Positions 1 to 35,290 of a DNA stretch of 64,000 nucleotides are shown here, piece by piece (position 1 is the first letter of the stretch; the number at the start of each line of letters is the position of its first letter). The notes under the pieces are model-generated. The model did not search any database, had not been told where the DNA came from, and saw only the letters and a program-made list of their open reading frames with translations. The DNA is from Paramacrobiotus metropolitanus (taxonomy: Eukaryota > Tardigrada > Eutardigrada > Parachela > Macrobiotidae): positions 1-64,000 of the forward strand of contig NW_026570357.1 in the NCBI RefSeq assembly GCF_019649055.1. The letters run 5' to 3'. The translations under genes were made by a program, and so were the position numbers.

Positions 1-784
1 TCTTCTGTGCGTATCCCATTATGAATCCAGTGTATAATAATTTGCCAGTCCAAGGAATGACCTTAACTGCCTTTCCGTTTGAGGTCGTTTGAATTCTGAG
101 ACCGCGGTGACCTTTCCGGATCCATTCTGATTCCATCTTCGCTGAGTATATGACCCAGGAATCCCATTTGTCTCATTCCAAATTCGCATTTCGTTGGTTT
201 AATCGTGAATCCTTCCAACCAGACTCATTAAAACATTTCGCAGATTCTGCATGAAAATTCTCCCAAGTTTTTCCGGCGAAGATCACGTCGTCGATATACC
301 CGAAAACGCAACCTTTTCTTTTCGCTTTGAAAGTACTTTATCCATACACAATTGAAATGTTGCTGGTCCGTTGCATACGCCAAATGGCATTCTTTTAAAT
401 CGGTACATTCCATCTTGTGTTACAAAGGTCGTCTTGTTGATTGACGCTGGATCCATTGGGATCTGCCAGAATCCACTTTGTAAGTCCATTTTTCCGTAAT
501 ATTTGTTGCCTGCGCACGCGTCGAGCAACTCATCCGGATTTGGTAACGGGTAATTATTCTTTCCTCGTTAGCTTGTTAAGCGATGTAATTGACGCAAAAT
601 CTTGTTCCCATTGTTCCGTCGCCATTTTTCTTACTGCCAGCACGACTGGAAAACTCCACTCGGCATCTGACGGTTCGATCACATCTTGTGCCAACATCTC
701 TTCGATATGCTTCGTTATAAACTCACGGCCTGTCCAACTCGTTCTGGCCGGGTTACATTTAACTGGTTTCGCATCCCGTGTCAA
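1..784 (-). pseudogene. Ty3-type reverse transcriptase, partial and frame-broken
   Basis: The minus strand carries successive RT landmarks: an entry segment with the GREFITKHIEEML stretch (554-784), the DLQSGFWQIP palm segment with MPFGVCNGPATFQ (283-528), the YIDD catalytic box near 280-300 and an FLGH-type thumb motif near 140-150. They lie in different frames. Breaks fall near 550, near 315 (beside a short A run) and near 108-115 (inside an AAAGGTCA copy). The enzyme would copy element RNA into DNA. Either this copy is dead or the breaks are indel errors in the assembly. RNase H and integrase are outside the window. Confidence 0.85.
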
Positions 785-913
785 TTACGTGAGTGACCCT
801 TTCACATCTCCATACGGTTTCTTTGATGTGGGTAAGACTTTCCAGAATTCCCAAACGCGTTGTACACGTTTTTTCTGCTCTTGCAAGGTCAGGTCCCAAT
901 TTCAAGTTTTCGA

Positions 914-1282
914 TTATCTTTTAAGTTCAGCTTTCGTTGTCTCATCCACCTCAGGGTCTTCGAGTACGTTCTTTACTGTCCCTGCGTTGACCTTTACATT
1001 CTCCATATGTTCATACGGCTCAACGTAGCCGAGAAGCTGATTTTTCTTCACGATTCGGTATTTGCTACTGTGATTTGCGATGACGATTTCGAAGTATTTT
1101 CCCCTGTGGTCCGTCACTCCTGCCAACGGTTGCACTTCAGTTTCCACTTGTGGGACCGGTGTAAACATCAACTTGTTTTGAGCCGGTGCATATTTTCCCA
1201 TCTTGACCTTTACACGTGTGCAGTTTGACGGTTTCAATTTGATTCGCTGATCGCTGTAAACTTTGATCACGTCCTTCGACAT
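914..1282 (-). CDS. Pre-RT segment of the Element I polyprotein
   Basis: A 122-aa ORF with a beta-rich run ending in an ITN-like patch (IVIANHSSKYRIVKKNQLLGYVEP) and a charged tail. In Ty3-type Pol the stretch between protease and RT commonly has this form (an N-x-S/T patch followed by a KKNQ-G turn), so I read it as the protease-RT connector. It lies about 130 bases upstream of the first RT segment in another frame. The 5' limit is uncertain because the next upstream ORF (1557-2231) is in a different frame. Confidence 0.6.
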   Translation of the reverse strand: MSKDVIKVYSDQRIKLKPSNCTRVKVKMGKYAPAQNKLMFTPVPQVETEVQPLAGVTDHRGKYFEIVIANHSSKYRIVKKNQLLGYVEPYEHMENVKVNAGTVKNVLEDPEVDETTKAELKR

Positions 1283-1556
1283 TCTAGCTTTTCCACTTTC
1301 AATCTTCTGACTTTAATATCCTTTTCTTTTTTCCTCATCTACTTCGTCATCTTCATCCAAGTCCATTAAATCCTCTTGCTCCGAAAGGTCACTTACACCT
1401 GAATCTTCCGAAGTTGTTGAGTTATCGCTTGAACTCGTCCACTCGGAGTCGGAGTTACTGCTCTCATATTCTTGTGCAGTGGCTTGACCTTTGTTTGCCT
1501 TTTCGAGTGGACGCTCATCAACTCCTTCATCTTCTGATGAAAGGTCACTTTCGTTT

Positions 1557-2231
1557 TCATGAATCGCTAAGTTTTTTCACTTTCGAATTTTTGAGCAGGG
1601 GTTTGTCCCCTTCTTTTGCCTTTCGCCCATTTCGTGCGGCTACTCTCGGGTGACTCCTCGCTACCCGAATTCTCGTTGGTGACCTTTCTGATTGATCGGA
1701 GTTTGACCTTTCTTCGTCCGATTTTGACTTTTCCAGTTCATTTATTTCTTCGGGACTCGTTAATGGCTTTTCGGTCAACTCGACCGGCGGACATTCCTCA
1801 CCGTTATCGAGTGACCTTTCCCCGTTTTTTGCCTCAGTTGCTGGGTTTTGCTGCTCATTCGATATCCTTTCAACTTCCTCTTTGAACCTTTTCCACATTT
1901 CCCCTCTATCCGTTAACATCTGCGCAATATCGAAAGCCGACTTTGAACTTTCTTCCGTTTCGTTCGATCTTACTTCGACTATTCCATTCGTGTCTTCAAC
2001 TGGTTCCTCTTTGTCTGCTTCTTTTACAGTCCCTTTATCGACTTCACCCTGTCGAACTGTTTCGTAACCTTTAGGTCGTTTAGGACCAACAAAGATGCAG
2101 TTTGCCATCAGCTCTTCGGTGACCCATTCATCATTTGGAATCGTTTCATACATGCACCATGTATCACCGCCTCGTTCGGGGTAGTCCACTCCATCTGGAT
2201 CTGGTGCAAAGGTCACCTTTTTCTTTTGCAC
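1557..2231 (-). CDS. Acidic, Ser/Glu-rich ORF of Element I, function unknown
   Basis: A 224-aa ORF, very rich in E, K, S and D, with no domain I recognise. It contains KVTFAPDPDG near its start and several ERS and KVT tripeptides that are the translated form of the AAAGGTCA DNA motif. The sequence 1286-1556 just downstream is also Glu/Ser/Asp-like on this strand, so this is probably part of a long disordered linker in the Pro-Pol polyprotein rather than a separate gene. Confidence 0.5.
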   Translation of the reverse strand: MQKKKVTFAPDPDGVDYPERGGDTWCMYETIPNDEWVTEELMANCIFVGPKRPKGYETVRQGEVDKGTVKEADKEEPVEDTNGIVEVRSNETEESSKSAFDIAQMLTDRGEMWKRFKEEVERISNEQQNPATEAKNGERSLDNGEECPPVELTEKPLTSPEEINELEKSKSDEERSNSDQSERSPTRIRVARSHPRVAARNGRKAKEGDKPLLKNSKVKKLSDS

Positions 2232-2351
2232 TAATCCCGGTAACCTTCTTTCCGGGCAACCTGTAATTCTCGCATCTCTTTTACGTCAAATTTGGGGATT
2301 TCTTCCTCGAATTTCTTCCAGTATTTCTCGAATGCTTTTTTCGTTTCCTCT

Positions 2352-2853
2352 TTAACGCGTTGTAGTACACTTCAAGTGATTCGTAGACAGGTGTACCAAG
2401 TCCTGCCGGGAAGATGATCGTTCTCCTTCACCTTTATACATGTGGTTCACACGGAAGTCCCAGAAAAGATCAACTCTCGCTTCTTCCCACATTTCTCCTT
2501 CCTCGGTCATTTCTTCTATCTCTCGTTCAATCTTCCTTTCTGTTGCTACCGGATCGAGAGGATCTTGGATTCCTTCTCGACACGTTGCAACCAATGGTTT
2601 AGCCATCTGCCTCTTCCAATTATAAACTTTCCACACATGACAACCACGTTCGATATCTATTCCAATGATACCGTTCGATGTGTGGTTTCCACATTTCGTT
2701 TGTCCGCATGATGCTTTTCGCTTTCTTTTGGGCATGACCTTTAAGGTCTGCTAATGCGGCATTACATCTTGGCCATTCTGAAGGGTCATCTTGAGGCATT
2801 TTCACAACATTCCGCGCATTCCCATTGTGGTTGCACTCTGCACGGATCCTCAA
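2352..2853 (-). CDS. Cys-containing ORF pair of Element I (two overlapping frames)
   Basis: Two minus-strand ORFs overlap: 2620-2853 (77 aa, with spaced Cys and His) and 2352-2735 (127 aa, with CGQTKCGNH and a later C-H pair). The first reads well up to ADLKGH and the second from there on, so a frame break probably lies near 2735, at an AAAGGTCA copy. Spaced C and H residues could form a small zinc-binding module, but I cannot name it. The downstream half is charged and helical (RKIEREIEEMTEEGEMWEE). Confidence 0.45.
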
Positions 2854-2947
2854 AGTAACCGTGGTGACAACTCCCGGCTCGTTCTTCTGGAGTTAATGTC
2901 TTTGACTCGCTTCAGGTTTAACCTGTTCCTGTACTGTGGTATCTTCC

Positions 2948-3826
2948 TCACATTCTGATTGGAGTCACGCTTTTATCCTCAGAGGATATTTCAATGACCT
3001 CTGGTTCTTTTTCTGTTCGGTGACCTTTCAATTGTTCGAGTGCCTTGTCGCGGATTTCGCTTGTAAACATCTGTTCCTCTTCAACTATTCGTTTCAAAAC
3101 TCGTAACCTTTCACTCTTTTTATCCTTCCCCACTTTAGCCGTCTTTATTTCCAGTGCCTCTGGTACTGGGATAGGCTTTGCCCACTCCATGTCTGGCACA
3201 AGAGATTGTTTCGCTGCAACTGCCGCTTCTTTCTGTGTGGCAATTATCTCTTCAATCGTTGGTGACCTTTCAATCGTTGGTGACCTTTGAGAGTCACGTT
3301 CTGTTACTTCCTCTTTGGCTTTATCTGGTAGCCTTTCATTTTGGGTAGCAGATCGTGGTTCGAAAAGGTTCGAATTACGCTCTCGTTCCAAGTTCTCAGT
3401 TGCTGGTGACCTTTCGTCTTCCTTTCCCAGTGCCTCTGGTACTGGGATAACTTTTCCGACTTTTCCATTTTCATTTTTCGTTTCCAGTGCCTCTGGTACT
3501 GGGATAATTTCTTCCTGCTGCACTTTTGTCATTCCCGGTGCCTCTGGTACTGGGATGACTTTTTCTCTTCCCTTCTGTGCCAGCAAGGTCCGATTTAATG
3601 TCTTTTCGATCTCCTGCTGAATCATTTGCAACTGCTCAAATGGTGACAATTCTTTTCGCGTCATCTTTTTCTTTTCGTTTCCCGGTGCCTCTGGTACTGG
3701 GATTAGCGTTTTATTAACCATTTGAGCATTTCCCGTCTGTTTTACAAGTTCGGTGACCTTTCCGACTTGAACTTTGGCGACTGGTTTTGGGTCGTCTTCT
3801 TTCTCTTCTTCACCTTCGTTATCCAT
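2948..3826 (-). CDS. Repeat-rich linker ORF (IPVPEA repeats) of Element I
   Basis: A 292-aa ORF made of charged, disordered sequence with five copies of IPVPEA(L/P) and several ERSP and KGH peptides. Its ATG overlaps the stop codon of the protease reading frame (TAATG near 3826-3830), so translation could continue by stop-start reinitiation. No enzymatic domain is seen. It lies between protease and RT, where standard Ty3 elements have almost nothing, so it is either a spacer domain or a host-interaction segment. Confidence 0.6.
   Translation of the reverse strand: MDNEGEEEKEDDPKPVAKVQVGKVTELVKQTGNAQMVNKTLIPVPEAPGNEKKKMTRKELSPFEQLQMIQQEIEKTLNRTLLAQKGREKVIPVPEAPGMTKVQQEEIIPVPEALETKNENGKVGKVIPVPEALGKEDERSPATENLERERNSNLFEPRSATQNERLPDKAKEEVTERDSQRSPTIERSPTIEEIIATQKEAAVAAKQSLVPDMEWAKPIPVPEALEIKTAKVGKDKKSERLRVLKRIVEEEQMFTSEIRDKALEQLKGHRTEKEPEVIEISSEDKSVTPIRM
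3148..3702 (-). repeat. Five copies of a 22-bp repeat encoding IPVPEA
   Basis: On the plus strand the core GTGCCTCTGGTACTGGGAT recurs near 3155, 3431, 3487, 3538 and 3685, each preceded by CCA or CCG. All copies are in the same coding frame and give IPVPEA. Unlike the AAAGGTCA motif, this repeat therefore behaves like a protein-level repeat. Confidence 0.85.
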
Positions 3827-6029
3827 TAGTACGAATTTCTTTCCAAGAAGTCAAATCCCAATAACACTTGTACGTCGTCACACTTCGGTCGGACGTAGAA
3901 TGAATGTTCGCTAGTCTTTTCCTTAAGGACACTGGCGCTACACAGTAGTGCGTCACCAGGAATCCTGACGTTCCGCTAATTCCATTTATTTTCACCAATC
4001 TGTCAGGTGGCAATGGGAGCATGTGGAGTCCATTCTTCTCGCAAAACGGTTTGCTGATCAGCGACGTCTCAGCGCCGGTGTCCAACATTGCGTTGACCTT
4101 TATGTCTCCCACTTTCACTTCGTGTGTGTACGCTTCAATTCTCTTGGGCAGTTTTCCATTTTGAATCTTCAAAGTATGAATCTTACATTTCACAGGAATG
4201 AGCGATACTGGTCCCGGATCCATATCGGGAAGCACTTGTCCTTTTGCTGGAGTGCTATGACCTTTCAATATCTCGCTCAACTTATCAATCCTGTGTGGGA
4301 CGTCAGTTCGAACATCGTAATATTTTCGCGGCTTTGTCTTTTCCGATTGCTTCTCTGGAGCCATTTTACCACTGGTGGCCTTTTGCACATTCCGCACTTG
4401 CTCATTTGCTTTTGTGCTGTGCACGTGACCTTTAGTCACTTCATTTATCGTCTGATGGATTAGTTCCTCTTTACGGTTTTCATTTCGCTTATCTTGCATC
4501 TTCTCAATAACTTTGCTTGTTATTTGGTCAGCTTGTTTCAGTTCATCTGCTTCACTGTCTTTCATCTCATCTGGTGACCTTTCATATGTAACCATATCAT
4601 ATCCCTTTTCGGTCATCCATTGCATCACTTTTGCAGATACTTCATTGTTCGTTTTCGTTGGGTCAATTTGCGAAGACATCCCGTCTGTTCGGGCTGGTGA
4701 CTTGTCATTGGCATCTTTTTGCAGTGCTTGTGATAAGTCCCGTGACCTTTCAACTGCGCTACTCTGTTGCGTTTGCGCTATCTCATTTGACCGTCCTTTT
4801 TGTTCATTTTGCGCTAAGTCCTGTGACCTTTCGTTGCGCTTCATGACAAATCCGCCACCTGTCAGCTTTTGTATGGGGACTTTTTCTCCATAGTTCGGCG
4901 GTTTATCCTGTGGTGGAGCATTACGTGAATGATTCCAGTCAGCGAATGTCTTCTTATATTCCTCTGGATTGAATACTGGGACTGGGTTCGATGACCTTTG
5001 CGCTGGTTTCCCGGTAACCAACTCTTCCAGTCGCTTTCTTTCACATTGCGTTCGCAACTGTTGCATGTCCCAGTAGTCCTCTTGTGACATTCTCGCTTTC
5101 TGCTTTGCTTTCGGCGTCACAGGTATCCACATCCCGTGATTGCCATTCGGTCTGTAGGCCACTTTTTGCCACTTCTCCTTCTGTTGTAATGTTACTGCGT
5201 CCACAAGTGAGTCGTCGGAGTTCTGTGCCATTTCCTTATTCTTTTGCTGCGCTGTTCGCAGTGTCAAGTCTGTTTCTTGACCTTTTAACACGACGCTGTC
5301 GCCGTGACCTTTTGCATTCGCACTCGCTCCTTGACCTTTAACTTGGACTTTTCCAGTAGAAGGTGACCTTTCATCTTTACTAATGACGGTGATATTCTGC
5401 TTAATCCATTCTTGCCTTATTCGCTTCTCTTCTTCGTCTTCTGAACAATTCCAAAACTTTGGCTTTGGTTCCCCGTAACAATCGCACCTTGGCTCATTTG
5501 CCTTGTCGTTTTCTGCCAAAATTTTTCGGAATTTTGCGTGCTGTCTATTTTCCTCTTGCGCAGTGTCGTTCTGCGGTTTCTTCTGATTCAGGAGCGCCTG
5601 TTGAATCTTTGCATTTCGTTGTGCGCGTCGTTGCGCTAACACTTCTTCGCTGCAGTACGGTGACCTTTGATTTTGCTGCACTTTTTGCAGTGTCGCGCTA
5701 CCGTCACGACAATTTCCACTCGCAGTACCATTCTGCGGTGACCTTTGGTCCCGTTGCGCGTTTCCACTCGCAGTACCATTCTGCGGTGACCTTTTATCCA
5801 CTTGGATGTTTCCACTCACAGTGCCATTCTGCGGTGACCTTTCGCTTTGTGACGGTATCCCTATAACCGTTCCATTTCCTTTTTGCGATGACGGCATCCA
5901 TATAGCCGTTTCTCTTTGCTGTGGCGGCATCCATCTAGCCGTTTCTTGTGGTTGCGGCATCCATATAGCCGGTCCACTTTGCTTTTTCGCTGACGGCATC
6001 CATATAGCCGTCGCAGTGGTCACATTCAC
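3819..6029 (-). CDS. Protease-bearing ORF of Element I
   Basis: A 736-aa ORF. About the first 600 residues are low-complexity and repetitive (AIWMP near the N-terminus, then RSPQNGTASGN, then Q/K/E-rich sequence with many ERSP, KGH and ERS). Near residue 645 is VNAMLDTGAETSLIS, the catalytic loop of a retropepsin-type aspartic protease, which cleaves the element polyprotein. The rest of the protease fold continues in another frame from about 3955 (a GFDFL flap-end motif is visible), so the listed C-terminus is probably not the real one; a one-base break lies near 3950-3965. The start ATG at 6029 is 80 bases past the Gag stop in a different frame, so expression from Gag would need frameshifting or reinitiation. 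Confidence 0.75.
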   Translation of the reverse strand: MNVTTATAIWMPSAKKQSGPAIWMPQPQETARWMPPQQRETAIWMPSSQKGNGTVIGIPSQSERSPQNGTVSGNIQVDKRSPQNGTASGNAQRDQRSPQNGTASGNCRDGSATLQKVQQNQRSPYCSEEVLAQRRAQRNAKIQQALLNQKKPQNDTAQEENRQHAKFRKILAENDKANEPRCDCYGEPKPKFWNCSEDEEEKRIRQEWIKQNITVISKDERSPSTGKVQVKGQGASANAKGHGDSVVLKGQETDLTLRTAQQKNKEMAQNSDDSLVDAVTLQQKEKWQKVAYRPNGNHGMWIPVTPKAKQKARMSQEDYWDMQQLRTQCERKRLEELVTGKPAQRSSNPVPVFNPEEYKKTFADWNHSRNAPPQDKPPNYGEKVPIQKLTGGGFVMKRNERSQDLAQNEQKGRSNEIAQTQQSSAVERSRDLSQALQKDANDKSPARTDGMSSQIDPTKTNNEVSAKVMQWMTEKGYDMVTYERSPDEMKDSEADELKQADQITSKVIEKMQDKRNENRKEELIHQTINEVTKGHVHSTKANEQVRNVQKATSGKMAPEKQSEKTKPRKYYDVRTDVPHRIDKLSEILKGHSTPAKGQVLPDMDPGPVSLIPVKCKIHTLKIQNGKLPKRIEAYTHEVKVGDIKVNAMLDTGAETSLISKPFCEKNGLHMLPLPPDRLVKINGISGTSGFLVTHYCVAPVSLRKRLANIHSTSDRSVTTYKCYWDLTSWKEIRTNG

Positions 6030-6030
6030 T
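5690..6030 (-). repeat. Short tandem repeats encoding QNGTASGN and AIWMP
   Basis: Two repeat families lie side by side. On the plus strand GCAGTACCATTCTGCGGTGA recurs near 5718, 5768 and 5816 (diverged) and 6031 (variant), each leading into an AAAGGTCA copy on the coding strand. The sequence GGCATCCATATAGCCG recurs near 5892, 5924, 5956 and 5995. They encode the N-terminal repeats of the protease ORF. Confidence 0.8.
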
Positions 6031-6109
6031 GCAGTACCATTCTGCAGTGTTGACCTTTCCCTTTTATCCGGTGGTTTAGGGTCGGGTCGATCAATAGGCT
6101 CACCGGTGC

Positions 6110-7576
6110 CTACTGATCTTGCCCGTTTCCCTGAACCGGCGCCCCGACTTGTTGCGCGCCTTGCACATTTCCCTGCTGTTGTTCATTCACCGGGCCGCCT
6201 CCGTTTGGCTGGCCACTACCCTGTTGGTAGTTTCCGCCTCCATTTCCACCGCCTCTGTAATTTCCGCGGCCATAGCCTCTGTTCCTTCCTCTGAAGCCGC
6301 CGCGGCCGAAGCCACCGCCGCGATAGCCGCCGCCTTGGCCGCCCCCATTTCCATTTCCATAGTTCCCATTACCTTGCTGATTCTGAAAGTTTGCTTTCGC
6401 CTGGTACCATTGCGTGATCAGGTCATATCCATTTGCGACCGCTTGGCGCCAACCACCGAGCCCGCGCAGTCGTTGCCACTCGTTGAAGGCAAACAGGTTT
6501 GGGTTCTGTTCCGGTGGTGTGTTGGCGAATTTGCATCCCTGGGTCTGGTGGTTGCCATACATACAGTACTGGCACATCTGCACATTGTTCGCCACCCATC
6601 CGTCAATCATCTGGAACTTAAACTCAGTTCGTGACCCTTGGTTTTGCTGTTGATTCCCTCTGAAGTTCCCTTGACCTTGACCTTGTCCCTGATTCTGGAA
6701 GTTCCCCTGACCTCCATTCCAATTTCCATTTCCGTATCCATTTCCGCCAAAGTTTCCGTTACCCCCTCCTTGTTGTGGTAACACGACATTCATAGGGACC
6801 ATATTCTGTGGTGCGGGTGGGGCTACATTCTGGGGAGTCACATTCTGGGCTACTGGTCTCACTTGAGCTGCTGCCTGTATCGCCGCCACCATTGCATATG
6901 TTATCGGTTGTCCCGTCTGACTGTCGATAAAGGTCACCTTTTCGGTGACCTCTCTGACCGGAGTCTCCACGCGGTACTCAACCGGCTGCTGGACTGGCGC
7001 AGCTGCCATTCTCTGTTGCGGCACGTTTTCAACTTGGCCTTGGCGGATGGTCACGTATTCCTGATTACGTTGACCTTTTGGTGCCTTGTATTTTTCTTCG
7101 CCCGTTGCCCAATGTCGGAAGAAGTCCTTCACATCCGTTGGCGTCTTGCACTTCTGTATACGCAGTGCCTTGTAGAGTTCATTGTCCACTCTACATCCTT
7201 CAATTAGGAAGCCAACTGCTTGCTTCTCGGTGATGATCCGTTTTGCTTTGAATCGCATCATCGCCTGGTAGTACTGGTCAAGCGATTCCTTTCCCAGTTC
7301 GAATTTCCTTGCGTAGGCCTCACGTAAGCCTAAGACTTCTTCGTCTCTATCGCCATATTCATCTTTGAATTTCTCCATCCATTCAGTTATTGAATATTCG
7401 ATTCTATCTTCTGCTGCGATGTCCTTTTCTCCTTCGAACCAAATTTTGGCAGGACCTTTGACCGCACTAGCAATCTCAATCATAATTTGGTCGTCCGTTA
7501 GCTGGTAGGTTCTTTGGGTTTCTTTTACTAGTCGTGTCCAGCCGCTCACCGTGTCGCGACTGCCGTCAAAGGTCAT
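6110..7576 (-). CDS. gag: Gag of Element I
   Basis: A 488-aa ORF. Residues 1-160 form a helical capsid-like core of the retrotransposon-Gag type (starts MTFDGSRDTVSGW, then WFEGE, W-M-E-K-F and a DQYYQAM helix). A Pro/Gln linker follows, then a Gly/Asn/Gln-rich stretch (270-315), a single CCHC zinc knuckle CQYCMYGNHQTQGC (about 335-348) and an RGG-rich RNA-binding tail (about 415-445). Gag would assemble the particle and bind element RNA. The ATG overlaps the stop of the upstream 68-aa ORF as ATGA, so the start is probably reached by coupled reinitiation. The Gag of Element II shares TFDG...V.GW and the knuckle spacing. Confidence 0.88.
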   Translation of the reverse strand: MTFDGSRDTVSGWTRLVKETQRTYQLTDDQIMIEIASAVKGPAKIWFEGEKDIAAEDRIEYSITEWMEKFKDEYGDRDEEVLGLREAYARKFELGKESLDQYYQAMMRFKAKRIITEKQAVGFLIEGCRVDNELYKALRIQKCKTPTDVKDFFRHWATGEEKYKAPKGQRNQEYVTIRQGQVENVPQQRMAAAPVQQPVEYRVETPVREVTEKVTFIDSQTGQPITYAMVAAIQAAAQVRPVAQNVTPQNVAPPAPQNMVPMNVVLPQQGGGNGNFGGNGYGNGNWNGGQGNFQNQGQGQGQGNFRGNQQQNQGSRTEFKFQMIDGWVANNVQMCQYCMYGNHQTQGCKFANTPPEQNPNLFAFNEWQRLRGLGGWRQAVANGYDLITQWYQAKANFQNQQGNGNYGNGNGGGQGGGYRGGGFGRGGFRGRNRGYGRGNYRGGGNGGGNYQQGSGQPNGGGPVNEQQQGNVQGAQQVGAPVQGNGQDQ

Positions 7577-7779
7577 AGTGGTGTTTTCCTAGCCATCGAG
7601 TTGAGCGCTTTTGTCAATTGCACCGCTGTGTTTTCTGCTCTCTGGTCATCGTCTTCTTCGCTGCTTTCATCATCGTTTTGGTTTCGTCTCGCTTTCCCAT
7701 AACGGGATTTCCTTGGGCGCTCCTGCCGGCTGGGGGGTCTGTCCCGTCGTCCTTCATCAATGAACACATTTGTTTCCAT
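7573..7779 (-). CDS. 68-aa charged ORF immediately upstream of Gag
   Basis: A short ORF starting METNVFIDEG and ending SMARKTPL. It is rich in R, D and E, with a poly-acidic patch (ESSEEDDD) and no recognisable domain. Its stop overlaps the Gag ATG (ATGA), and its ATG lies about 30 bases after the coiled-coil ORF stop. It may be a true small protein, the N-terminal part of Gag, or a device to deliver ribosomes to the Gag start. Another ATG at 7805 opens a different frame and looks spurious. Confidence 0.5.
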   Translation of the reverse strand: METNVFIDEGRRDRPPSRQERPRKSRYGKARRNQNDDESSEEDDDQRAENTAVQLTKALNSMARKTPL

Positions 7780-7811
7780 GTGCGGGGGAAATTGTGAAGG
7801 GTCACCTCGAC

Positions 7812-9851
7812 TTATATGCGGGTAACTTTCCGATGGTGGCTCTTTGTCATCTTTGGCCTTTTCCTCGTCCTTTTCGTTTTGACACTTCCTCTGCCAGTAC
7901 CAGTTCGTAGCGGCATATCGAAGTGGAAGCTTTTACCCGTGCCCGTTTCATGCGCCTTGCTGTAACTGGGCGGAGGGGACTCCACTGTTGCCGTTTTAAC
8001 TCCATATTGTAGGAGTTGTTCATCTTTGTGCTTATTTGACGTCTGGAGCGCCTTGTTCTCATCTTCCAATCGTTTAGTCCTCAGTTGAAGTTCTTCTCTT
8101 TCTCTCTTTAGATCAGAATTTTCCAGGTTGACCCTTCGTAAGTGTTCCTGCAGTTTAAAAGACTCCTGCTGGGTGACCTTTTCATTTTCCCGTTCCATCT
8201 TTTTGATGTGCTCGACCAGCTCACTCGTTTCATTTTCGAGTTGCTGATACTGCCCAGCGGCTGATCTCAGCTGATCCTTGATTGCGATCAACTCATCATC
8301 TTTTGCCAATGCTGTGGTGGTCATCTCGACGAGGTCAGTGTTCAGCTTTGCAATCTCCTGACTCTTTTGAGCGACCTGTTGTTGCCACTCTTTGTCCTTC
8401 AGCTCCAATGTTGTGACCATTGTGTCCAGTCGCCGTGCTTCCTTCTGCCATTTGAGTCCTTCCTTAGTGACCTTTTCAATGTCTTCTGTGACCTTTTCAT
8501 TCTCCTGGTTGACCTTTTTGATTTCTTCTTTCAGGCGTTCTCCTTCAGTAGCTGTGATGTCTCTAGCCTCTCGCATCGCTTTGATTGCATCATTGCGCAA
8601 CTTCTCAGCTTCGTCCGCCCGTTCCTGATGACCTTTCGATTCTAGTTGCAGAGTACTGACAGCCTCCTCCCGTAGCTTCAGGTCATTCCTTAGTTTGAAC
8701 GTCTCCGTTGCCAATGTCGTTAACCGTTGTGTGACCTCTGCGAATTTGGTCGCGTATTCGTCCCGTTTAGTTTCAGCTTCAGTGACCTTTTGACGCAACT
8801 GGTCACACTCGTCCTTCAATTCGGCTAAGTGTCGTGACCTTTCAGCTGATTCTTCTGACATACTCTCGTTCAACTCGCTAACCGCAAGATGACCTTCCAT
8901 TTCTCTGTCATCTACCATTTTGAGGTACTCTTCAGCGAGTTCTTTTTGACGCTCGTATTTAATCTTCCATTCATCCGCTGCGCTTTCCAAGTCGGCCTGT
9001 TGTTGCTCCAGTTCATAGATACGAGCATCCAGAGTTCCTATCCGATTTTGATATTCCTGTTTCCTTTTCGTCACCAGGCCTTCCTTGGCTTCGAGTTCCT
9101 CTTCCAACTCCTTCACGCGTCTCTTCAGAGTTGACGTGGGACTGTTAGGTGACGGTGGTCGTACGTTGATGACCTTTCCTGTTTGTGTCCGTTCGATTAG
9201 GTGCTCCGGTATATCTTTGAAAGGTGTTATCCCTTCAGCACGGTCAGCCTCCTTCATCGCGGTTTGGAAGGACATATTCATCGTCGCTTCGTCATCCGTG
9301 AAGTAAGACTCATTCGATTCATCTGAGACCATTGGAGTTGACCAAAGGTCATCGCCTGCGGTCTTATCATTCAGTGAAAGGTCATCCAATCCCAGTTCAG
9401 TCAGTTCCTCTTCGGTGACCTTTGTGTTTCTCTCATCCACTTGAGCCAGGTTCACATTTTTATCCTGCTCATTCGTTCCACTAATGGTGGCATCAAGCTG
9501 TGATGCTCCAACTGGTTCCGCTCCCCTTTCTGTGGGTTTATCCTCCCCGGTGACCTTTGTCTGGTTCATCGGATGACTTCCCGCCGCAGATGCGGGAGTA
9601 TCCTTTCCGTCACCGCTGGAGCTCTCCTCATTCTGTGTAGCTCCAAGCGCCACTTGGTATGTGCTATCACTGCCTTTGCTGTCTTTTCTTGCAAAGGTCA
9701 CAGCCGCTCGGGTCTGTCTATCATGTCCGACTGGACGCGCGAGCGACTTGTATTCCTTCTTATATGGATCAACTGCGCTTTGTTGTGATCCTCGGGAGCT
9801 CCTGCTTCCCTGACTGCTGGTAGATGTCGGTTCCTCTTTGTCTTTATCCAT
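7812..9851 (-). CDS. Coiled-coil protein encoded upstream of Gag (ORF0-like)
   Basis: A 679-aa ORF with an acidic, disordered N-terminal third (about 1-235) and a long heptad-patterned coiled coil from about 235 to 620 (runs such as LEEELEAKEGLV and LDARIYELEQQQ), then a basic tail ending KVTRI. No enzymatic motif is seen. A large coiled-coil ORF ahead of Gag is not part of the usual Ty3 plan, yet decayed Elements II and III in this window have the same order. Possible roles are RNA binding, particle scaffolding or trafficking, none shown. KVT and KGH peptides in it are translations of the AAAGGTCA DNA motif. The start is the first ATG after the leader array. Confidence 0.75.
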   Translation of the reverse strand: MDKDKEEPTSTSSQGSRSSRGSQQSAVDPYKKEYKSLARPVGHDRQTRAAVTFARKDSKGSDSTYQVALGATQNEESSSGDGKDTPASAAGSHPMNQTKVTGEDKPTERGAEPVGASQLDATISGTNEQDKNVNLAQVDERNTKVTEEELTELGLDDLSLNDKTAGDDLWSTPMVSDESNESYFTDDEATMNMSFQTAMKEADRAEGITPFKDIPEHLIERTQTGKVINVRPPSPNSPTSTLKRRVKELEEELEAKEGLVTKRKQEYQNRIGTLDARIYELEQQQADLESAADEWKIKYERQKELAEEYLKMVDDREMEGHLAVSELNESMSEESAERSRHLAELKDECDQLRQKVTEAETKRDEYATKFAEVTQRLTTLATETFKLRNDLKLREEAVSTLQLESKGHQERADEAEKLRNDAIKAMREARDITATEGERLKEEIKKVNQENEKVTEDIEKVTKEGLKWQKEARRLDTMVTTLELKDKEWQQQVAQKSQEIAKLNTDLVEMTTTALAKDDELIAIKDQLRSAAGQYQQLENETSELVEHIKKMERENEKVTQQESFKLQEHLRRVNLENSDLKREREELQLRTKRLEDENKALQTSNKHKDEQLLQYGVKTATVESPPPSYSKAHETGTGKSFHFDMPLRTGTGRGSVKTKRTRKRPKMTKSHHRKVTRI

Positions 9852-9926
9852 GTTGATCGGATAACTTGGACGCTCCTGCCAATTGTTCTCACAAACACGT
9901 TATTGTATGGTTTATTCAATTGTCCT

Positions 9927-10472
9927 AAAGGTCACTTTCGTTCTGTGAAATTTTCTAAGTCCTTAGTAAAGGTCACTTTCCAGTTGGAAAATTTCGATTA
10001 AGTCCCGTTTAAAGGTCACTTTTTCGTTAAAAAGTTCGAGAGGTTTGCCCTAACGGTCACTCTTTAGACAAAACTTTCCGAAACCGTTTCTACGGTTAGA
10101 ACACATTAACGAATGAAATCCTACAGCTGCTGATGTCGCTGTATTACTATTCAGTTCAATTTCACTTCGGTAAAGGTCACCGTATGTCACTTTCGGATCA
10201 TAAAGGTCACTTAACTAGGTCAATCCGGTCGATTCCAACTTTTTGGTAAAGGTCACTTTTCTAAGTTAAAGGTCAACTTCTGGTCTCAAAAGCTTTCCGA
10301 CTCAATTCAACTCAAAAGGTCACTTTCTAACTCAATTTCTGTTAAAAGGTCACTTTCCCGCTCAATTCAAGTTAAAGGTCACTTTTTAAGCTCAATTCGA
10401 TCAAAGGTCACTTTCTAGCTCGGTTTTGATCAAAGGTCATTTTTCCTTTGTCAGAACTTAAAAGGTCACTTT
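9927..10472 (+). repeat. Leader tandem array of AAAGGTCACTTT
   Basis: Thirteen exact AAAGGTCA copies plus one variant (ACGGTCAC at 10053) lie between the coiled-coil ORF and the promoter-like region. Starts are at 9927, 9968, 10011, 10172, 10202, 10248, 10268, 10315, 10345, 10374, 10403, 10432 and 10461. The last six are spaced by 29-30 bp, with a semi-conserved CTCAATTC spacer; the first four sit 41-43 bp apart. All are in plus orientation, so the element RNA (minus strand) carries the complement AAAGTGACCTTT. Confidence 0.95.
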
Positions 10473-10560
10473 CCGTCTCACTTATCTCATCTCAAATCAA
10501 ATTTCCCATTATCGCTCAAGTTCAACGGAAAATCCCCATTCGGGTTGTTTACTTCTTTCT

Positions 10561-10771
10561 GATTGGTCCGCTAGCTCAAAATATTCAATTCAAATTTCGA
10601 CCAATCACAGCTCAAATAACTGACCAATCACGTTAGTCCATTTAAATTTTTATATTAGCCTGACGTCACGGTCAACGGCCAGACGTGCACACCGTGTGCA
10701 AAACTCCGCCTACTTTTACACTCAGCTCAGTACGGACCAATAAAAATTGCCAATTTTACCAACTAGCCAAT
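10561..10771 (-). promoter_or_regulatory. Promoter-like region for Element I (TATA, CRE, CCAAT)
   Basis: On the minus strand there is a TATA-like box (TATAAAAA, 10647-10654), a perfect CRE/ATF palindrome TGACGTCA (10661-10668) just upstream of it, and CCAAT pentamers near 10601, 10624, 10737, 10750 and 10767. A start site about 25-30 bp beyond the TATA would give a leader of roughly 770 nt containing the whole AAAGGTCA array. This could be LTR U3/R, but no second LTR is in the window. Promoter function is inferred. Confidence 0.45.
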
Positions 10772-12240
10772 CTCGTAATTATTAACGGTTTTCTACCTGT
10801 TAACCGTCCGTCCGTTCCGCGTTCCACGGGGAAATGATCCAAATGATCCAGATTCTTCTTCCACTATCCGTTCCCGCGCTGCCGCCGGTTTTACCGTAAC
10901 GGTGGTGCCGCACGCTTTTGATAAGTTACTGTGCCGGCTGACTGCCGTAGCAACAGTGGTGGCGCTCTACTCCAGTTTGGAGGAGTCTGATCGGTCTTTT
11001 CCCGTGCGCCCCTTTTGGCGCTTCGCCGCTTGTGGCCCACGGCTTAGGCTTCGCTGAAGCCTTGCCGAGTAACGGTGACACCAGTGCAGGTCTTCGCTGA
11101 AGACTCCGCACCGAGGAACACCGCCGACTGAACTCTTTGACTCTTGCACAGCTAAGGAAACAGTACGGTTCTTCGCTGAAGATCCCGTACCGAAAACCGA
11201 AGCTGGAAAATCCACGTCAGATGAGGCAGTTCACCGCTTGTGGTGTGCGCTTTGCTGTGAGTACAGACCTGTGCCTTACTGGTCGGGTTCCACGTCAATA
11301 ACAGGCCAACTTTGCCTGACACAAATCAAATCAGAGAACCGCTGTCGGCTCTGCTACCATCTAATGCTAGATCCAACTGTGATCCAGATACGGAGACCTA
11401 AACGGAATAGATCCCGTGGAGTGAGCTATGCGATAAGTATAGCGAACTACGCGGAATCGCGAAACGTCGCACCGCTAATAGCTAACTTTTAATAATATTG
11501 AAAATTCCGACAATCGAAAATCAATAATGATCGGCGCAGCTCGATCGTAAAGCGTGGAGCCCATTCAACAGCGTGCAACGCTGTGCAGCACGTGCTATGC
11601 CGCGCCCACTAACAAAACACAAGCCAATCAGAAGCGAGACACAACACAGGCCATAATCCAAAGGCGTAGCGCCTAGCGCCACTGACGTGAACGCTAGTGA
11701 TCCCGGTCTCACAACAGAAAAAAACTAAGTTTTTTTTTAATTTGCTGAAATTATTTACTGTACAATTTGACTACTACGGTACCCTTTTAGCGGAGTAACG
11801 TTACGATGGAGACTATGATACTGCAGCAGGCTGCAACTCGCATGCGGCAAGAGTATTTAAGCAACGGATTATCGTTGTTCCGGCTCGGGCTACGAAAGAC
11901 GGTCAACAGAACGAGACATAGTGAGAGAGGCTGAGTTAGAGCAAGCCTTTGCCCTTAGAGAAGGCGGCATTCCTTCGCTGCGACTGATCTCTCTGTTTCC
12001 TTCCATTTCTAGCGAGTGGTCTGCAGACTGCAGCCATGACTCGCCTTTCAGTCAGAGCAGCGTCTAAATCTAACTGACAGCCTGCCGGCACTGGCCACTG
12101 TGAATGGCCCATGTGCAAATTCTTCATCTGTTGGCTCACGGCAAAATTTTCTGAGAGTGAGAAGTTATCAAGCGAGTTGAAGCCTATACGACCAGCAGAC
12201 AACAGCCAGGCAACCACGTCAGCCTCAACCATCGACATCT
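10772..12240. other. Region without convincing genes (apart from the hairpins)
   Basis: Contains the three hairpins, GC-rich sequence near 10860-11060, AT-rich sequence near 11700-11760, and only short, unsupported ORFs. I see no tRNA, rRNA or recognisable protein. It may include Element I LTR sequence. Confidence 0.5.
11040..11190. ncRNA. Three tandem hairpins with one loop and compensating stems
   Basis: At 11040-11067, 11084-11111 and 11163-11190 the sequence folds as outer stem, small internal loop, inner stem, loop GCT. Outer stems differ but stay paired: CGGC/GCCG, GTGC/GCAC and GTACGG/CCGTAC. Inner stems are GGCTTC/GAAGCC, GTCTTC/GAAGAC and TCTTC/GAAGA around the constant core CTTCGCTGAAG. 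Each unit is exactly 28 nt. A minus ORF (10967-11215) runs through them, but the three cores fall in three different frames, so protein conservation cannot explain them. The transcript strand is unknown. They lie upstream of Element I and may belong to its LTR. Confidence 0.6.
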
Positions 12241-13760: not shown

Positions 13761-13855
13761 TTAATATAATTACAATTTAAAAATTATAATTAAATAACAC
13801 AGTCAAAATCCAGCCCGTTATCCATACGAATATAGCGGAAACCACTCCTATTACC

Positions 13856-15711
13856 AGCTCCAGATGAATGTGATGACCTGTGACCGAATCGGCAATCCGC
13901 GTCGACAAACGCGACAGATCGACCCCTCTCGGCACAACACGATTCCTCTCAAGGAACTCCAGCACCTGCATTTCCAGCTGCTCGGCCGCCTGACAGGTGA
14001 TCGAATCCTTCGATACAACGGCCCTCAGTAGGTGCAACTCAAAACGACACTGTGCCCAACATACGCGTTCGGCGGTGCTGCACATCCGCCGCAGAGAGTT
14101 CAGGGTTTGCGTCATATCCCAGCCATACCAGTCCGGCAGCCAACACCGATAAAATACCAGGGTTCTGACGCGGCTACGCCGCCCAATGACGTAGCGGAGC
14201 ATGGTGGCCGCATCGTCGCATTCGCTCATGTCCATGTGTATAAGAACCATCGTCTTGGTGCTTTGGTTAACGCAGTGGAGAAGACTGGCCAGTATCCAGA
14301 ACAAGGGCTCCCTGCGAAGCGACGGACAGTCCTCGTTGCGGCCAGAGACCCGCACATCGCGGAAGAAAGCGCCGGTGGTGAGGATAGCGTTCCAAAGGAC
14401 GCAGGTGCGCCGGCAACGGGTGCGGTGGACGCTGTCCAGCGACTGGAAGACTTCCGTTAGCAGCATGCTGGGTAGCGATTGGAACAGTGGACAGCAGGCG
14501 CTGGCATTCTTCCTTTCCTTTTCCTGTATAAATTGCTGCTCAGTTTCATAATGTAGAATGTAGGAGTAAAAATAGTAGATACTACGCTTTTACCGTTACA
14601 GCAGCCGTGGTATATTAACCATAATTGTTTCGTATTCGTTTTGGGACAACTCGTTGTGCCACGGTTTCGTTAGATGATATTTGGTCACGCGACTTTCCTG
14701 TATATCCCGAATAACCCGAACTACCCCGAATGAATATCCCGCGGGTTAGAAGTTTAGGAATTGTGTATAGCAACGAGCAGTTAAAATGACTATTCGGCAC
14801 GAAAACGAATTGTCCTTAAACGAAATGCCTGTAATACCCGTCCGTCTGTGCCGAATTGTACTTCGAACAAAAATCCCGCGGCAACATGTCGCATGGAGCC
14901 ATGCGGCAAGTTTTAAACGCATGATATGCAACCATGCATTAGTCCAAAACCGGGGCCGGCGATTTCTGCGTAATAGATTTCTTAGTGTTGCTACTTTATT
15001 AAATTTTGGAATCGCGTACCAATTTGCCCTTTCTGTAAAAGTGGATGCTGAATTACAGCTAGGCATCTAACAGCGACGCTCCGCTTACTAATAAAAAACG
15101 CACCTGTCCCAGTCGCCGCAAGATACGTTCCCCGCCGCGTTGTACTTCTAGCAGCCTGTCGACGTTCACCAGCTCGGTGAACCATGGTAGTTTCTGAAAA
15201 ATTCTTCTCGTCACAATCTGATGAGACGCGCCTGGACAGGCCGCCGACAAGCGTTTGCAAATTGTAATTTCAACCCTACACTGTCTTGTATGCAGCGACT
15301 GGCCAAGTCGGTTTCCGAGGGCGGTCGGCGCACTTGATTCGTGGGCAGCAGCTCCTTAACCACACCATGGGGCAGTTGCGCCTCCACGACGTACACACTG
15401 GCCAAGTAGCTCTCCTTCCCAAGGGACACTGCATTCGCGGGGTACCATTTCCAGGGGCTGTCGGGGCCAGCGCGCAGGAGGGACTGCACCTTAGGTTCAA
15501 AAGCCACACCCAGCTCCAAGTCATAGCAGGGTCTCCACGCGCGAAAGATACGGCCGTATGCGACAAATTGTGAGCGTTGTGCAGTACAGCCAAAATCAAT
15601 GATTAGTCCGTTCTCCACCGCGTCGACTGCCCTGCCCAACTGCATGAAGCCGTCAACAAGGACCTCCACGGCGTTCCACGGCGGGTCTTCGTCTTCTTCG
15701 TATATGAACAT
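13856..15711 (-). pseudogene. F-box locus C (Agenet-like module plus F-box)
   Basis: Exon 1 (about 15104-15711) starts at MFIYEEDED and carries the family N-module: WNAVEVLVDG...G.IIDFGC, then VQSLLRAGPDSPWKWYP and an LP.NQVRRPPS end. Its last part shifts frame near 15250-15260. The donor GTGCGTTT matches the donor in loci A and B. After a 580-bp intron, exon 2 (13856-14523, acceptor TATACAG) encodes the F-box LPSMLLTEVFQSLDS...CRRTCVLWNAIL and the family C-terminal repeat. The donor at 13855 is GTAATA, but I find no family last exon downstream; reading on gives a hydrophobic tail. Frame break plus missing exon suggest a pseudogene. F-box proteins recruit substrates to SCF ubiquitin ligases. 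Confidence 0.6.
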
Positions 15712-19410: not shown

Positions 19411-20980
19411 GTCCATTGTACCCATCCCTGTTCCCGAATATGAACTTTCGCCTGAGCCCACATCTGGTATCAGGTCAAGCTCCAACAAGCAGCACGAAAC
19501 CAAACCGGACCAACCCGCCGAGCCCAATGTTCGGGCCATCAGCCCCAACGGGCCAAGCCCAACTACAGCTGGGCCAGAATGTGCCCAACCCACCCGGCGC
19601 ACCGCCAACGGCGGCGTCGCCACCCAGACCGGCAGCTCAGCCGAACCAGGGCCAGAATACGCCCGTGCTAGTTCAGCTGTCTGATGAAACATACGGGTTG
19701 ATGGCGTCCAACGGTCAATCCAATACCCGCCTCAACCGTTGTTGAACCCTCAACAGGGGCATCAGCCGGGCCCAGCGCCATAGGCACTGCAGCTACCGCC
19801 ACAAGTAGTGGTACAGCAGATAACGCCTGCACCGTTGCCAAGTGCCAGTCCCCAGTGCATGACCTGGCACACATGCAGATGCTGGCCGACTCGTATGCGA
19901 AGGCTAATGCAAAGACCAACGCCCGGACCATCCAGCTGACCTTCGACGGCGACAAGACAGCCGTGAAAGGGTGGATTGCCCAGATCAGAAGGATCTGTAA
20001 GCAGTCGTCCGACTTTAACAAGCCAGACCCGGACTTCATGAGCCGCATCTTCGCATCGTTGTCCAAGGTCAAGAAATGGTATAAGGGCCGGGCAAAGCGT
20101 GAAGAAGGCGTCGGCTGGACAGACGACGAGTTTCTTCAGAAGTTTGCCGCTCGATACGACGACGAGAACCAACAGGCCAATGCTCTTGGAGACTTCTCGC
20201 ATCGTACCTCCTGGCACGGTTTCGAGACGCCAGACCAGTACTGTGACGCAATCTTAACTCTCCAGGCACGCGCCAACTTAGACGACACAATGATTCTTCA
20301 TTTCCCGAAGACCAATATGACTGAGCCGGAACTGCGCCGTGCCCAAAACATCTGACTGCCAAAGTCTCCACAGAATTTCGAGACTATATTCGGCAGTTTA
20401 CGGCAGGTAAACCCGAATACGACGGGAAGGCGGGCTATGGATACCTGGTCATCCGGGCGGCCGCACCAACGCCACCTGCCCAAGTCGTACCGGCTTACTA
20501 TCCTCCATCCAACAGCCAACATCACCGGCTTACTATACTCCACAGACGCTTACACCAACCCAAGCCCAAATTGAAGCAACATATGTCGCTATCGCGGCTA
20601 TGAAGGTGGGCGCGCCACAACGTGGGTCCACACCGCCTAACGTTGGTGGTGGTGGTTATGGCCAGGCCCAGAACCAGTGCAATTTTGGCTATAGCCCGGG
20701 TAACGGTGACGGTGGAGAACAAAAAGGCGGATATTGCGGAGGTCAAAGCGCCAGCTTCAGCGGAAAGCGAGGCGGCGGCAATAGTAGCTCCGGACGACGT
20801 GGCCAAGAAGGCAGCGCAGGCCAAGAGAACATGTACATCGATAGGATCGAGCGCATGTTCGAACGGTGGGCCAGAGAAAGAACCATAATTTGCAACTACT
20901 GTCTCTGGGGAAACCACAAAACTGAAGGATGCGGCCACGCCAATAGAGATTACATAGACAATCCAAATCGGATATGGTAA
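19411..20980 (+). pseudogene. gag: Gag of Element II, frame-broken
   Basis: A Pro/Gln-rich start (19416-19745, e.g. PTAASPPRPAAQPNQ) is followed by a capsid-like core (19855-20355) with IQLTFDGDKTAVKGW, then a frame change. A Gly/Asn-rich segment follows (20600 on), with one CCHC knuckle CNYCLWGNHKTEGCGH near 20895-20945. Another Gly/Gln-rich tail is at 20982-21239 in another frame. Homology to Element I Gag is visible in the core start and the knuckle. Stops at about 19783 and 20353 and the frame changes mark it as dead, unless some are assembly errors. Confidence 0.7.
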
Positions 20981-26641: not shown

Positions 26642-26764
26642 ATAGACTAAAATTATTGAGAGTTTAACCCGTTTAGGGTAACTAAGACATTGCTTCCCTG
26701 TACCTTCCCTTAAAAGCGAAAACAAAGATTTCGAATATTTAGACGCTGCAACAGCCTGTGATAC

Positions 26765-27190
26765 CAATGGACCATATGGAACTCTATTGGAACTTATTGG
26801 ATCTGTTGGAACTACTGTACATCGTTTAATTGCGAACTAACGTGACACCAGTGGAACCTATGAAACTCTATTGGCACTTATTGGAACTGTTGGAACTACT
26901 TTTACACCGTTCAATTGCGACCTGGTGTGACACCAGTGGAACCTATGGAACTCTATTGGAACTTATTGGAACTGTTGGAACTACTTTTACACCGTTCAAT
27001 TGCGATCTGGTGTGAAACCAGTGGAACCTATGGAACTCTATTGGAACTTATTGGAACTGTTGGAACTACTGTACATTGTTCAATTGCGCCCTGGTGTGAC
27101 ACCAGTGGAACCTATGGAACTCTATTGGAACTTATTGGAACTGTTGGAACTACTGTACATCGTTTAATTCCGACCTGATTTAACATCACT
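26765..27190 (+). repeat. 84/85-bp minisatellite, left array
   Basis: About five units, anchored by GTGACACC at 26842, 26927, 27012 (variant) and 27096. Each unit contains the perfect palindrome CTGGTGTGACACCAG and an internal run of TTGGAACT sub-repeats of 9-12 bp. The inverted counterpart is at 35291-35640. Confidence 0.93.
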
Positions 27191-27609
27191 GGAACCTATG
27201 GAACCCGTTGGAACTGTTAAAATTTCTGAAACTAACAGCACTGCGCCCTTTTGTGATACCAAGGGGAAGCATCGAATGCTGTTAGAACTCATTGAAAATA
27301 ATATCAGTATTTACTAGGTTTCTAATTATGTTTCTAATATTTTAGTAGCTAACGCTACTAGAAAATACCGGTGATGCTCAAGCTGATATCATTAGGAAAG
27401 GTTTTACGACGTTTTATGCCTAATTAATTCGGTAAAATGGGAAAACACAGAAGCACTGCAGAAAATCAAATCTATAATTTAGAGCATTTTAGCTAAGCAT
27501 ATGAAGAGCTAACTGCAAAAATCGATATTTCATATTTAATTGATAATTAATCGATAATTATTAGTAATTAGTTTTTATCGCTTAGAACAGTACGGAAATT
27601 TCCAAGGTT

Positions 27610-34956: not shown

Positions 34957-35290
34957 ACATTCAGCAGATGATGATATTACTTATAATATGTATTTTCAGC
35001 TTTTCAAAGCATCAAACTGCTACAAAGTTTAAACTGCTCACTCCTGCTACTAATGAGGTAATAAAATTACGATCAGTATTCGCAAACGATGTCTCATGTC
35101 CTCAGTTTCTGTGAGCTATAGTACGCCTCACTAACATTATTTTCGAAAATACTTCTAACTACAGCAATTTTTGAAGTAACTTTTAGTTCAACAGGTTTCA
35201 ACAGCAACAGGTAAAGATAGCATAAGAGCCCGAAGGCATATTTGCAGTGTTTCCTTCGGTTCCAACGGGTTCCAAAAAAGTTTCACAGGC

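What the first reader, a model, noticed from the sequence alone, without database searches (positions are those of the whole stretch)
1..10472. An 8-bp motif (AAAGGTCA) saturates a retroelement in all three reading frames
Seen: about 61 exact copies in 10.5 kb against about 0.3 expected, and only three in the other 53 kb. In coding regions it is read as KGH, (E)RSP and KVT according to frame, so many ORFs are peppered with these peptides. Because the DNA word is kept while the peptide changes, selection or copying acts on nucleic acid. Known: AAAGGTCA is the NBRE, the monomer site of NR4A nuclear receptors, and AGGTCA is the general nuclear-receptor half-site. Inference: the element may be a dense receptor-binding platform, or the word may be a packaging or processing signal in its RNA.
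Basis: partly seen in the sequence, partly recalled or inferred. Interest (0 to 1): 0.92.

Follow-up and report, generated by a model that had tools for sequence, protein, structure and literature searches.

The report
Giant tardigrade retroelement saturated with AAAGGTCA
A very large jumping gene of a tardigrade carries about a hundred copies of one exact eight-letter DNA word, kept by selection even inside its protein-coding genes and in both directions, which suggests the whole element is built as a landing strip for a DNA-binding protein.

Summary
Confirmed, and stronger than reported. The window (tardigrade Paramacrobiotus metropolitanus) holds the 5' part of a Ty3/gypsy-type LTR element, 24.7 kb in one complete copy. 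AAAGGTCA or its complement occurs 61 times in 1-10472, 3 times in the rest, and 94 times in that complete copy. Synonymous shuffles of six of its ORFs give 5.7 forward and 0.37 reversed words against 60 and 11. Between copies, fourfold third positions change in 12/455 comparisons inside the word and 2264/9330 outside; conservation stops at exactly 8 bp. Both orientations fill about as many of the places the proteins permit: 60/80 and 11/15. A second subfamily, 63% identical, keeps 7 of 13 alignable sites and has others of its own. Two copies of a sister family have none in 8.3 kb. So selection acts on the DNA word, orientation-blind in ORFs, in one lineage. I favour double-stranded DNA binding along the element, serving expression or resistance to silencing. 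The word equals the NR4A monomer site and the host has an NR4A-like receptor; the binder is unproven. RNA signals are less supported, though noncoding sites nearly all point one way.

The parts
11360..11713 (-). 5' LTR, about 354 bp; no copy of the word
   Evidence: 19 other copies cut out become alike with the window at 11713-11721; the stretch recurs as 3' LTR in 3 of the 22 loci L021-L042; in copy C1 the two LTRs are identical, 359/359, with 4-bp target duplication ggca
11347..11359 (-). putative primer-binding site, TGGTAGCAGAG..., directly after the LTR
   Evidence: read; its match to the initiator-Met tRNA 3' end is recalled, not tested
10473..11359 (-). leader of about 890 nt without the word in any of 20 copies (the window's own included)
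   Evidence: first site 1240-1252 nt into the extracted 5' region, which begins about 7 nt before the LTR in the window's copy
9927..10468 (-). 5' untranslated array: 13 words, all TGACCTTT in the element's sense, 9 of 13 as AAAGTGACCTTT, 6 of 12 spacings 29-30 bp
   Evidence: the paired 12-mer pattern has 123 places in the genome and 0 for the reversed control
7812..9899 (-). first Gag-type ORF (stop to stop, 695 aa, coiled-coil-like by eye): 10 words in sense, 3 reversed
6110..7588 (-). second Gag-type ORF (492 aa) with one CX2CX4HX4C knuckle: 1 word in sense, 2 reversed
   Evidence: knuckle read by eye from the translation, no Pfam match
3819..6182 (-). ORF with aspartic protease (PF13650): 16 words in sense against a mean of 1.8 in synonymous shuffles (max 7 of 1000)
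2948..3850 (-). continuation with IPVPEA(L/P)G repeats; 5 words (shuffle mean 0.44, max 4)
914..2750 (-). three further ORF pieces (2352-2750, 1557-2285, 914-1312) leading towards the reverse transcriptase, which lies beyond the contig end; the frames are interrupted in this copy
   Evidence: reverse transcriptase follows in copy C1
108..10468 (.). 61 exact AAAGGTCA/TGACCTTT sites

Best explanation
The 8-bp word is a binding site recognised in double-stranded DNA and spread over most of a giant Ty3/gypsy-type retroelement, densest in a 5' untranslated array and otherwise written into the ORFs wherever the proteins allow. Shown here: exact 8-bp selection at synonymous positions, in all frames, in both orientations within ORFs, over long divergence, and absent from a sister family. 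Inferred: the ligand is a protein binding the integrated (or cDNA) duplex, and many bound molecules together keep the 24.7-kb element transcribed or unsilenced along its length. Most likely candidates are a host nuclear receptor of the NR4A/HR38 kind, whose monomer site is exactly this word, or a protein encoded by the element itself.
For: Word kept in 361/411 alignable site-copy pairs against 0.436 for other 8-mers; substitution rate 0.015-0.054 at the 8 positions, 0.042-0.252 at the 20 positions on either side. Third positions: 12/455 and 12/588 changed inside, 2264/9330 and 2778/12820 outside, 641/3038 for fourfold sites outside but within 40 bp; with codon held equal, e.g. GGT 0/78 inside, 120/325 outside. 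Orientation: enrichment 60 against 5.7 forward, 11 against 0.37 reversed; permitted places used 60/80 and 11/15, second subfamily 14/19 and 6/7, sister ORFs 0/7 and 0/4; retention 300/338 and 61/73. Gain and retention between subfamilies at 63% identity: 7/13 in place against 7.1% of control 8-mers, with sites found on one side only. Spacing of 74 gaps in copy C1 is like random placement, so number rather than position seems to matter. NBRE identity and host NR4A-like exons. A precedent for dense short motifs bound by an element's own protein exists in VANDAL21.
Against: No binding data of any kind. Noncoding sites are strongly one-sided: 237 TGACCTTT and 0 AAAGGTCA in the 5' regions of 20 copies, 5:1, 7:1 and 6:2 in the last 1.4-1.8 kb before the 3' LTR of C1, C8 and C43 (for C43 the end of the last ORF was not checked). 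Tandem duplication can explain much of the 5' array but not all 3' sites. The 5' array also conserves an AAAG-like prefix that coding sites lack, and some of its sites are variable (one is exact in only 3 of 19 other copies). The reversed word is less protected in its Asp-Leu frame (GAC 5/36, CTT 4/36 changed). The LTR and the first ~890 nt carry no site. No recognisable DNA-binding domain in three extra ORFs beyond a sub-threshold linker-histone match.
Confidence: 0.5

Rival explanations
1. RNA-level signal: the word acts in the genomic RNA, as dispersed packaging sites for Gag, or as an all-to-all pairing network in which UGACCUUU of the untranslated ends pairs with AAAGGUCA of the ORFs and folds or dimerises a 24.7-kb RNA.
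For: Noncoding ends carry almost only TGACCTTT while ORFs carry mostly AAAGGTCA, which a pairing network would predict; Gag has a zinc knuckle (by eye). Dispersed packaging signals are known in RNA viruses (listing and starts of abstracts).
Against: Reversed words inside ORFs are enriched 30-fold, conserved and used about as fully as forward ones, which a one-strand RNA site does not predict. G-U-compatible changes are not favoured: 23 over 5 positions against 17 over 3 incompatible transitions (my tally). The word is not more open than same-GC control words. Stem-loop context site by site was not examined.
Confidence: 0.25
2. DNA-level, but not transcription: the word serves the cDNA or the duplex in another way, such as coating or compaction, nuclear transport, recombination (as Chi or uptake words do in bacteria) or chromosome behaviour.
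For: Same density-driven pattern on both strands of the ORFs; exactness over 8 positions resembles such scattered words (recalled comparison).
Against: No specific evidence; the densest cluster lies in the 5' untranslated region, where regulatory arrays such as gypsy's sit.
Confidence: 0.15
3. Peptide selection, codon bias, tandem duplication or assembly artefact makes the word look frequent.
For: The 5' array is partly tandem; peptides such as ERSP recur.
Against: Three frames and two orientations; codon-matched comparison; sharp 8-bp edges; synonymous shuffles; different contigs and a diverged subfamily.
Confidence: 0.02

Closest known systems
VANDAL21 transposons and VANC21 anti-silencing protein (Arabidopsis; PMC5735166, passages read)
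   Same: A short word at high density marks one TE family and is rare in others, partly as tandem arrays in one orientation.
   Different: That motif lies mainly in noncoding regions of a DNA transposon and has a known element-encoded binder; here it fills the ORFs of a retroelement and no binder is known.
gypsy insulator, 12 Su(Hw) sites in the 5' untranslated region (PMC2374998, passages read)
   Same: A gypsy element with about a dozen protein-binding sites clustered in its 5' untranslated region.
   Different: Different and longer consensus, and confined to 340 bp; here the word continues through some 20 kb.
NBRE, the NR4A monomer site AAAGGTCA (PMC7901948, one passage read)
   Same: Identical 8-bp word; host has an NR4A/HR38-like DNA-binding domain.
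   Different: That passage speaks of promoter regions of target genes; binding here is untested.
Dispersed RNA packaging signals of small RNA viruses (PMC6281560 and others, listing and starts of abstracts only)
   Same: Many copies of one recognition signal spread through coding RNA.
   Different: Here both orientations are kept, as an exact linear word.
Giant gypsy-like elements Burro and Ogre (PMC6431247, passages read)
   Same: LTR elements of 16 to over 30 kb with extra ORFs.
   Different: Short LTRs of 354-359 bp here; no saturating DNA word is mentioned in the passages seen.

Membership tests
Ty3/gypsy-type LTR retrotransposon | PR-RT-RNaseH-integrase order | tested here: met
   Pfam PF13650, PF00078, PF17917/PF17919, PF17921, PF00665 in this order in copy C1; PR alone in the window
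Ty3/gypsy-type LTR retrotransposon | Two LTRs and short target duplication | tested here: met
   C1: 359/359 identical LTRs, 4-bp ggca on both sides; 3' LTR also in C8 and C43
Ty3/gypsy-type LTR retrotransposon | tRNA primer-binding site after the 5' LTR | tested here: inconclusive
   TGGTAGCAGAG directly after the LTR; match to a tRNA recalled only
VANC-type anti-silencing system | High-density short word specific to one TE lineage | tested here: met
   94 in C1; 0 in 8.3 kb of two sister copies, L043 and L044; other TE families of the genome not surveyed beyond the window
VANC-type anti-silencing system | Word confined mainly to noncoding regions | tested here: not met
   at least 71 of 94 words of C1 lie in six long ORFs
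VANC-type anti-silencing system | Element-encoded sequence-specific binder that relieves silencing | not testable with these tools
   three extra ORFs without a domain above its curated cut-off; no solved-structure relative for two of them
NR4A (NBRE) response platform | Exact AAAGGTCA, 8 positions | tested here: met
NR4A (NBRE) response platform | Host NR4A receptor present | tested here: inconclusive
   two neighbouring stretches, 83% and 76% identical to a recalled NR4A DNA-binding domain, at C45:296815-297648; the exact A-box region was not seen and orthology by tree not tested
NR4A (NBRE) response platform | Binding in the cell | not testable with these tools
   needs ChIP or gel shift
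Dispersed RNA packaging signal | Signal present on the RNA strand in one orientation | tested here: not met
   reversed words in ORFs 11 against 0.37 expected, conserved 61/73
Dispersed RNA packaging signal | Recognition by capsid protein | not testable with these tools
   none

The most novel reading that the evidence does not exclude
A eukaryotic retroelement has turned most of its body, ORFs included, into an orientation-blind code of about a hundred exact protein-binding sites, so that a captured host nuclear receptor (or its own protein) covers the element and shields it from silencing: selection on a DNA word overlaid on the genes of a mobile element.
Probability: 0.35. Interest if true: 0.95.

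Novelty: new variant of a known kind. Interest (0 to 1): 0.86.

Why it matters
Recognition sites of mobile elements are usually found in LTRs, untranslated regions and introns (general knowledge). Here third codon positions inside an exact 8-bp word change eight to eleven times less often than those outside, through the coding regions of a 24.7-kb element. That gives a clean, testable case of selection on a DNA word written through proteins, points to a specific ligand, and offers, with a word-free sister family in the same genome, a natural control for how elements stay active.

Tried and rejected
Rejected: codon bias and peptide selection; tandem duplication as full account; 10-bp helical phasing of sites in copy C1 (no signal among 40 gaps under 200 bp; the period-3 signal is expected from codons); regular spacing (CV 0.97, random mean 1.04); open RNA at the word; another over-represented 8-mer in the sister family (top count 5); a microRNA seed site, because both strands are used (reasoning only). 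Led nowhere: Rfam and tRNA scans of the window; solved-structure searches with two extra ORFs; the linker-histone-like end of one ORF stayed below its cut-off and was not found in the seven relatives scanned, weakly in 2 of 4 isolated ends; the paired 12-mer has no exact match in the viral and prokaryote contig collections; no paper with 'tardigrade', 'retrotransposon' and 'Paramacrobiotus', and the only two with 'retrotransposon' and AAAGGTCA do not look related from title and start of abstract. Whether the sister family lacks the extra ORFs could not be settled: the search scored only 62 of 693 candidates. Relatives in other tardigrades could not be searched as DNA; the protein searches found P. 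metropolitanus only (11 of 11 and 12 of 12 hits).
Full report
WHAT IS THERE. The window lies at the start of contig C137 of a 169.8-Mb genome. All 11 protein relatives of the second Gag ORF are named Paramacrobiotus metropolitanus, a tardigrade (taxonomy), and several of their contig lengths equal those of G000 contigs (e.g. C1, C101, C104, C181, C473). Window 1-11713, minus strand, is the 5' part of an LTR retroelement. The 19 other copies that cut out become alike with it at 11713-11721, and the 354-bp stretch 11360-11713 recurs downstream in copies C1, C8 and C43. Copy C1 spans 24,663 bp, has identical LTRs (359/359) and a 4-bp target duplication. Its ORFs hold protease, reverse transcriptase, RNase H and integrase in Ty3/gypsy order, followed by at least three further long ORFs without a domain above its curated cut-off, one of them rich in RS/SR peptides. 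The window copy is cut by the contig end before the reverse transcriptase, and its frames are interrupted.

THE WORD. AAAGGTCA/TGACCTTT occurs 61 times in 1-10472 and 3 times elsewhere in the window. Copy C1 has 67 forward and 27 reversed, 94 in all, counted piece by piece, so a word across a piece boundary would be missed; the density of the backwards control word predicts about 2.3 (my arithmetic). Ten copies were read downstream of the 5' region: eight are rich in the word over all of the 17-19 kb read, C43 up to its 3' LTR (it is internally shorter), and C76 only over its first 4 kb, where it is truncated. Genome-wide the word occurs 42,562 times against 15,522 for its reversal. In the reverse-transcriptase search 150 of 1425 candidates were scored: 137 are at 84-100% identity and 13 at 73% (my count).

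SELECTION ON THE WORD. Synonymous shuffles that keep protein and codon usage give 5.7 forward and 0.37 reversed words for six long ORFs of C1, against 60 and 11; for the window's ORFs, where the smallest ORFs carry too few words to tell. In an alignment of 11 copies (about 9.8 kb each, C76 4 kb) C1 has 48 words. Of 480 possible site-copy pairs 411 were alignable (local identity above 0.5, no gap); 361 keep the word exactly, against 43.6% for other 8-mers. The substitution rate is 0.015-0.054 at the eight positions and 0.129 one base before and 0.131 one base after; over the 20 positions on each side it runs from 0.042 to 0.252. At third codon positions, comparing only codons with the same first two bases and local identity of at least 0.6, and leaving out the last gag codons, fourfold sites changed in 12/455 cases inside, 2264/9330 outside and 641/3038 outside but within 40 bp of a word; the other sites in 12/588 and 2778/12820. 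Held by codon, GGT changes 0/78 inside and 120/325 outside, AGG 0/117 and 40/139, TCA 0/114 and 36/328; protection is weaker for GAC (5/36, outside 218/774) and CTT (4/36, outside 33/136), the codons of the reversed word in one frame. Copies are related, so pairs are not independent and I give no P values. Two other 8-mers are also well kept (48/59 and 56/70); by eye they belong to one peptide repeat, IPVPEA(L/P)G.

DEEP RETENTION, GAIN, AND A WORD-FREE SISTER. Two copies of a second subfamily (L045, L046) have 20 words each in 3 kb. Between C1 and L045, 62.8% identical over the aligned columns, 7 of 13 alignable words are in place, against 7.1% of other 8-mers; each side has words the other lacks. 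L045 and L046 are 97.3% alike, so they count as one observation. A family with 73% identical reverse transcriptase has no word in 4,191 and 4,124 bp just upstream of it, and no other 8-mer above 5 copies. The saturation is therefore a property of one lineage as far as sampled, old within it, and renewed by gain and loss.

DNA OR RNA. If the word were read on one RNA strand, the reversed word should not be favoured in ORFs. It is: 11 against 0.37; it is retained 61/73, the forward word 300/338. Counting every place where the protein as it stands could be encoded with the word, C1 uses 60 of 80 forward and 11 of 15 reversed places, L045 14/19 and 6/7, the sister ORFs 0/7 and 0/4. The excess of forward words in ORFs thus fits what peptides the proteins tolerate. 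The proteins were themselves shaped by the word, so this measures equal retention, not equal origin. RNA accessibility gives no support: in all five comparisons the word is less open than same-GC controls. G-U-compatible changes are not in excess. Against this stands one unexplained fact: in the 5' regions of 20 copies (the window's included) all 237 words are TGACCTTT, and in the last 1.4-1.8 kb before the 3' LTR the ratio is 5:1, 7:1 and 6:2 in C1, C8 and C43. The 5' array is partly tandem with many 28-31-bp spacings, its sites are not all fixed (one is exact in 3 of 19 other copies, another is missing in 18), and VANDAL21 arrays too run in one orientation; the 3' sites sit in mostly different contexts. 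A pairing network between untranslated ends and ORFs would predict this bias and remains open.

WHAT BINDS. The word equals the NBRE, bound by NR4A receptors. A recalled NR4A DNA-binding domain finds 37 stretches in the host; the best E-values belong to other receptors at 52-61% identity, but two neighbouring stretches on C45 are 83% and 76% identical and read CAVCGD..CEGCKGFFK and then RTVQKGSKYVCL..CQFCRYQKCLAVGMVKE. Orthology was not tested by a tree, and the region after the zinc fingers was not seen. Among the element's extra ORFs only a weak linker-histone-like stretch was seen: E 8.5e-4, below the curated cut-off, in one copy, absent at E 0.05 in seven relatives, not all of which reach that end, and at best E 0.062 for isolated ends.

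MECHANISM. Best reading: a duplex-binding factor recruited at about a hundred sites, by number rather than by position (spacing in C1 is like random), with the 5' array as the strongest cluster, keeps the element expressed or unsilenced. Comparable designs are gypsy's 12 Su(Hw) sites in its 5' untranslated region and the dense VANC21 motifs of VANDAL21, mainly in noncoding regions. I know of no retroelement whose ORFs are saturated in this way; the listings of searches showed none by title and start of abstract, but only part of the matches was listed and the library lacks most subscription papers.

Noticed in passing
window ~3300-3800 (-); L043, L044: A peptide repeat IPVPEA(L/P)G, with related IPIPEAPG in the word-free sister family, seems well conserved in DNA too (48/59 and 56/70 for two 8-mers assigned to it by eye); perhaps a processing or docking peptide.
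   Followed up: partly
P0004-P0026: Public gene models name several pieces of this element golgin, myosin, paramyosin, ATRX homologue and the like: misannotation.
   Followed up: no
window 38612-41066: Twenty copies of a 123-bp unit (94% matches), much of it open in frame, the longest frame being 572 aa on +.
   Followed up: no
window 26757-27215 and 35251-35636: 84-bp tandem repeats that look like reverse complements of each other, about 8 kb apart.
   Followed up: no
window 19702-20980 and 44770-46962 (+): Two other Gag-like ORF regions, the first resembling the word-free sister family by eye; neither has the word.
   Followed up: partly
window 13777-14589, 55421-56098, 58345-59433, 62257-63330: Several related F-box-like ORFs; the first matches PF12937 just below its cut-off, the others resemble it by eye.
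   Followed up: no
copy C1, ORF P0002 (L041:6778-9000, -): An extra ORF rich in RS/SR dipeptides like splicing factors, partly written with the word.
   Followed up: no
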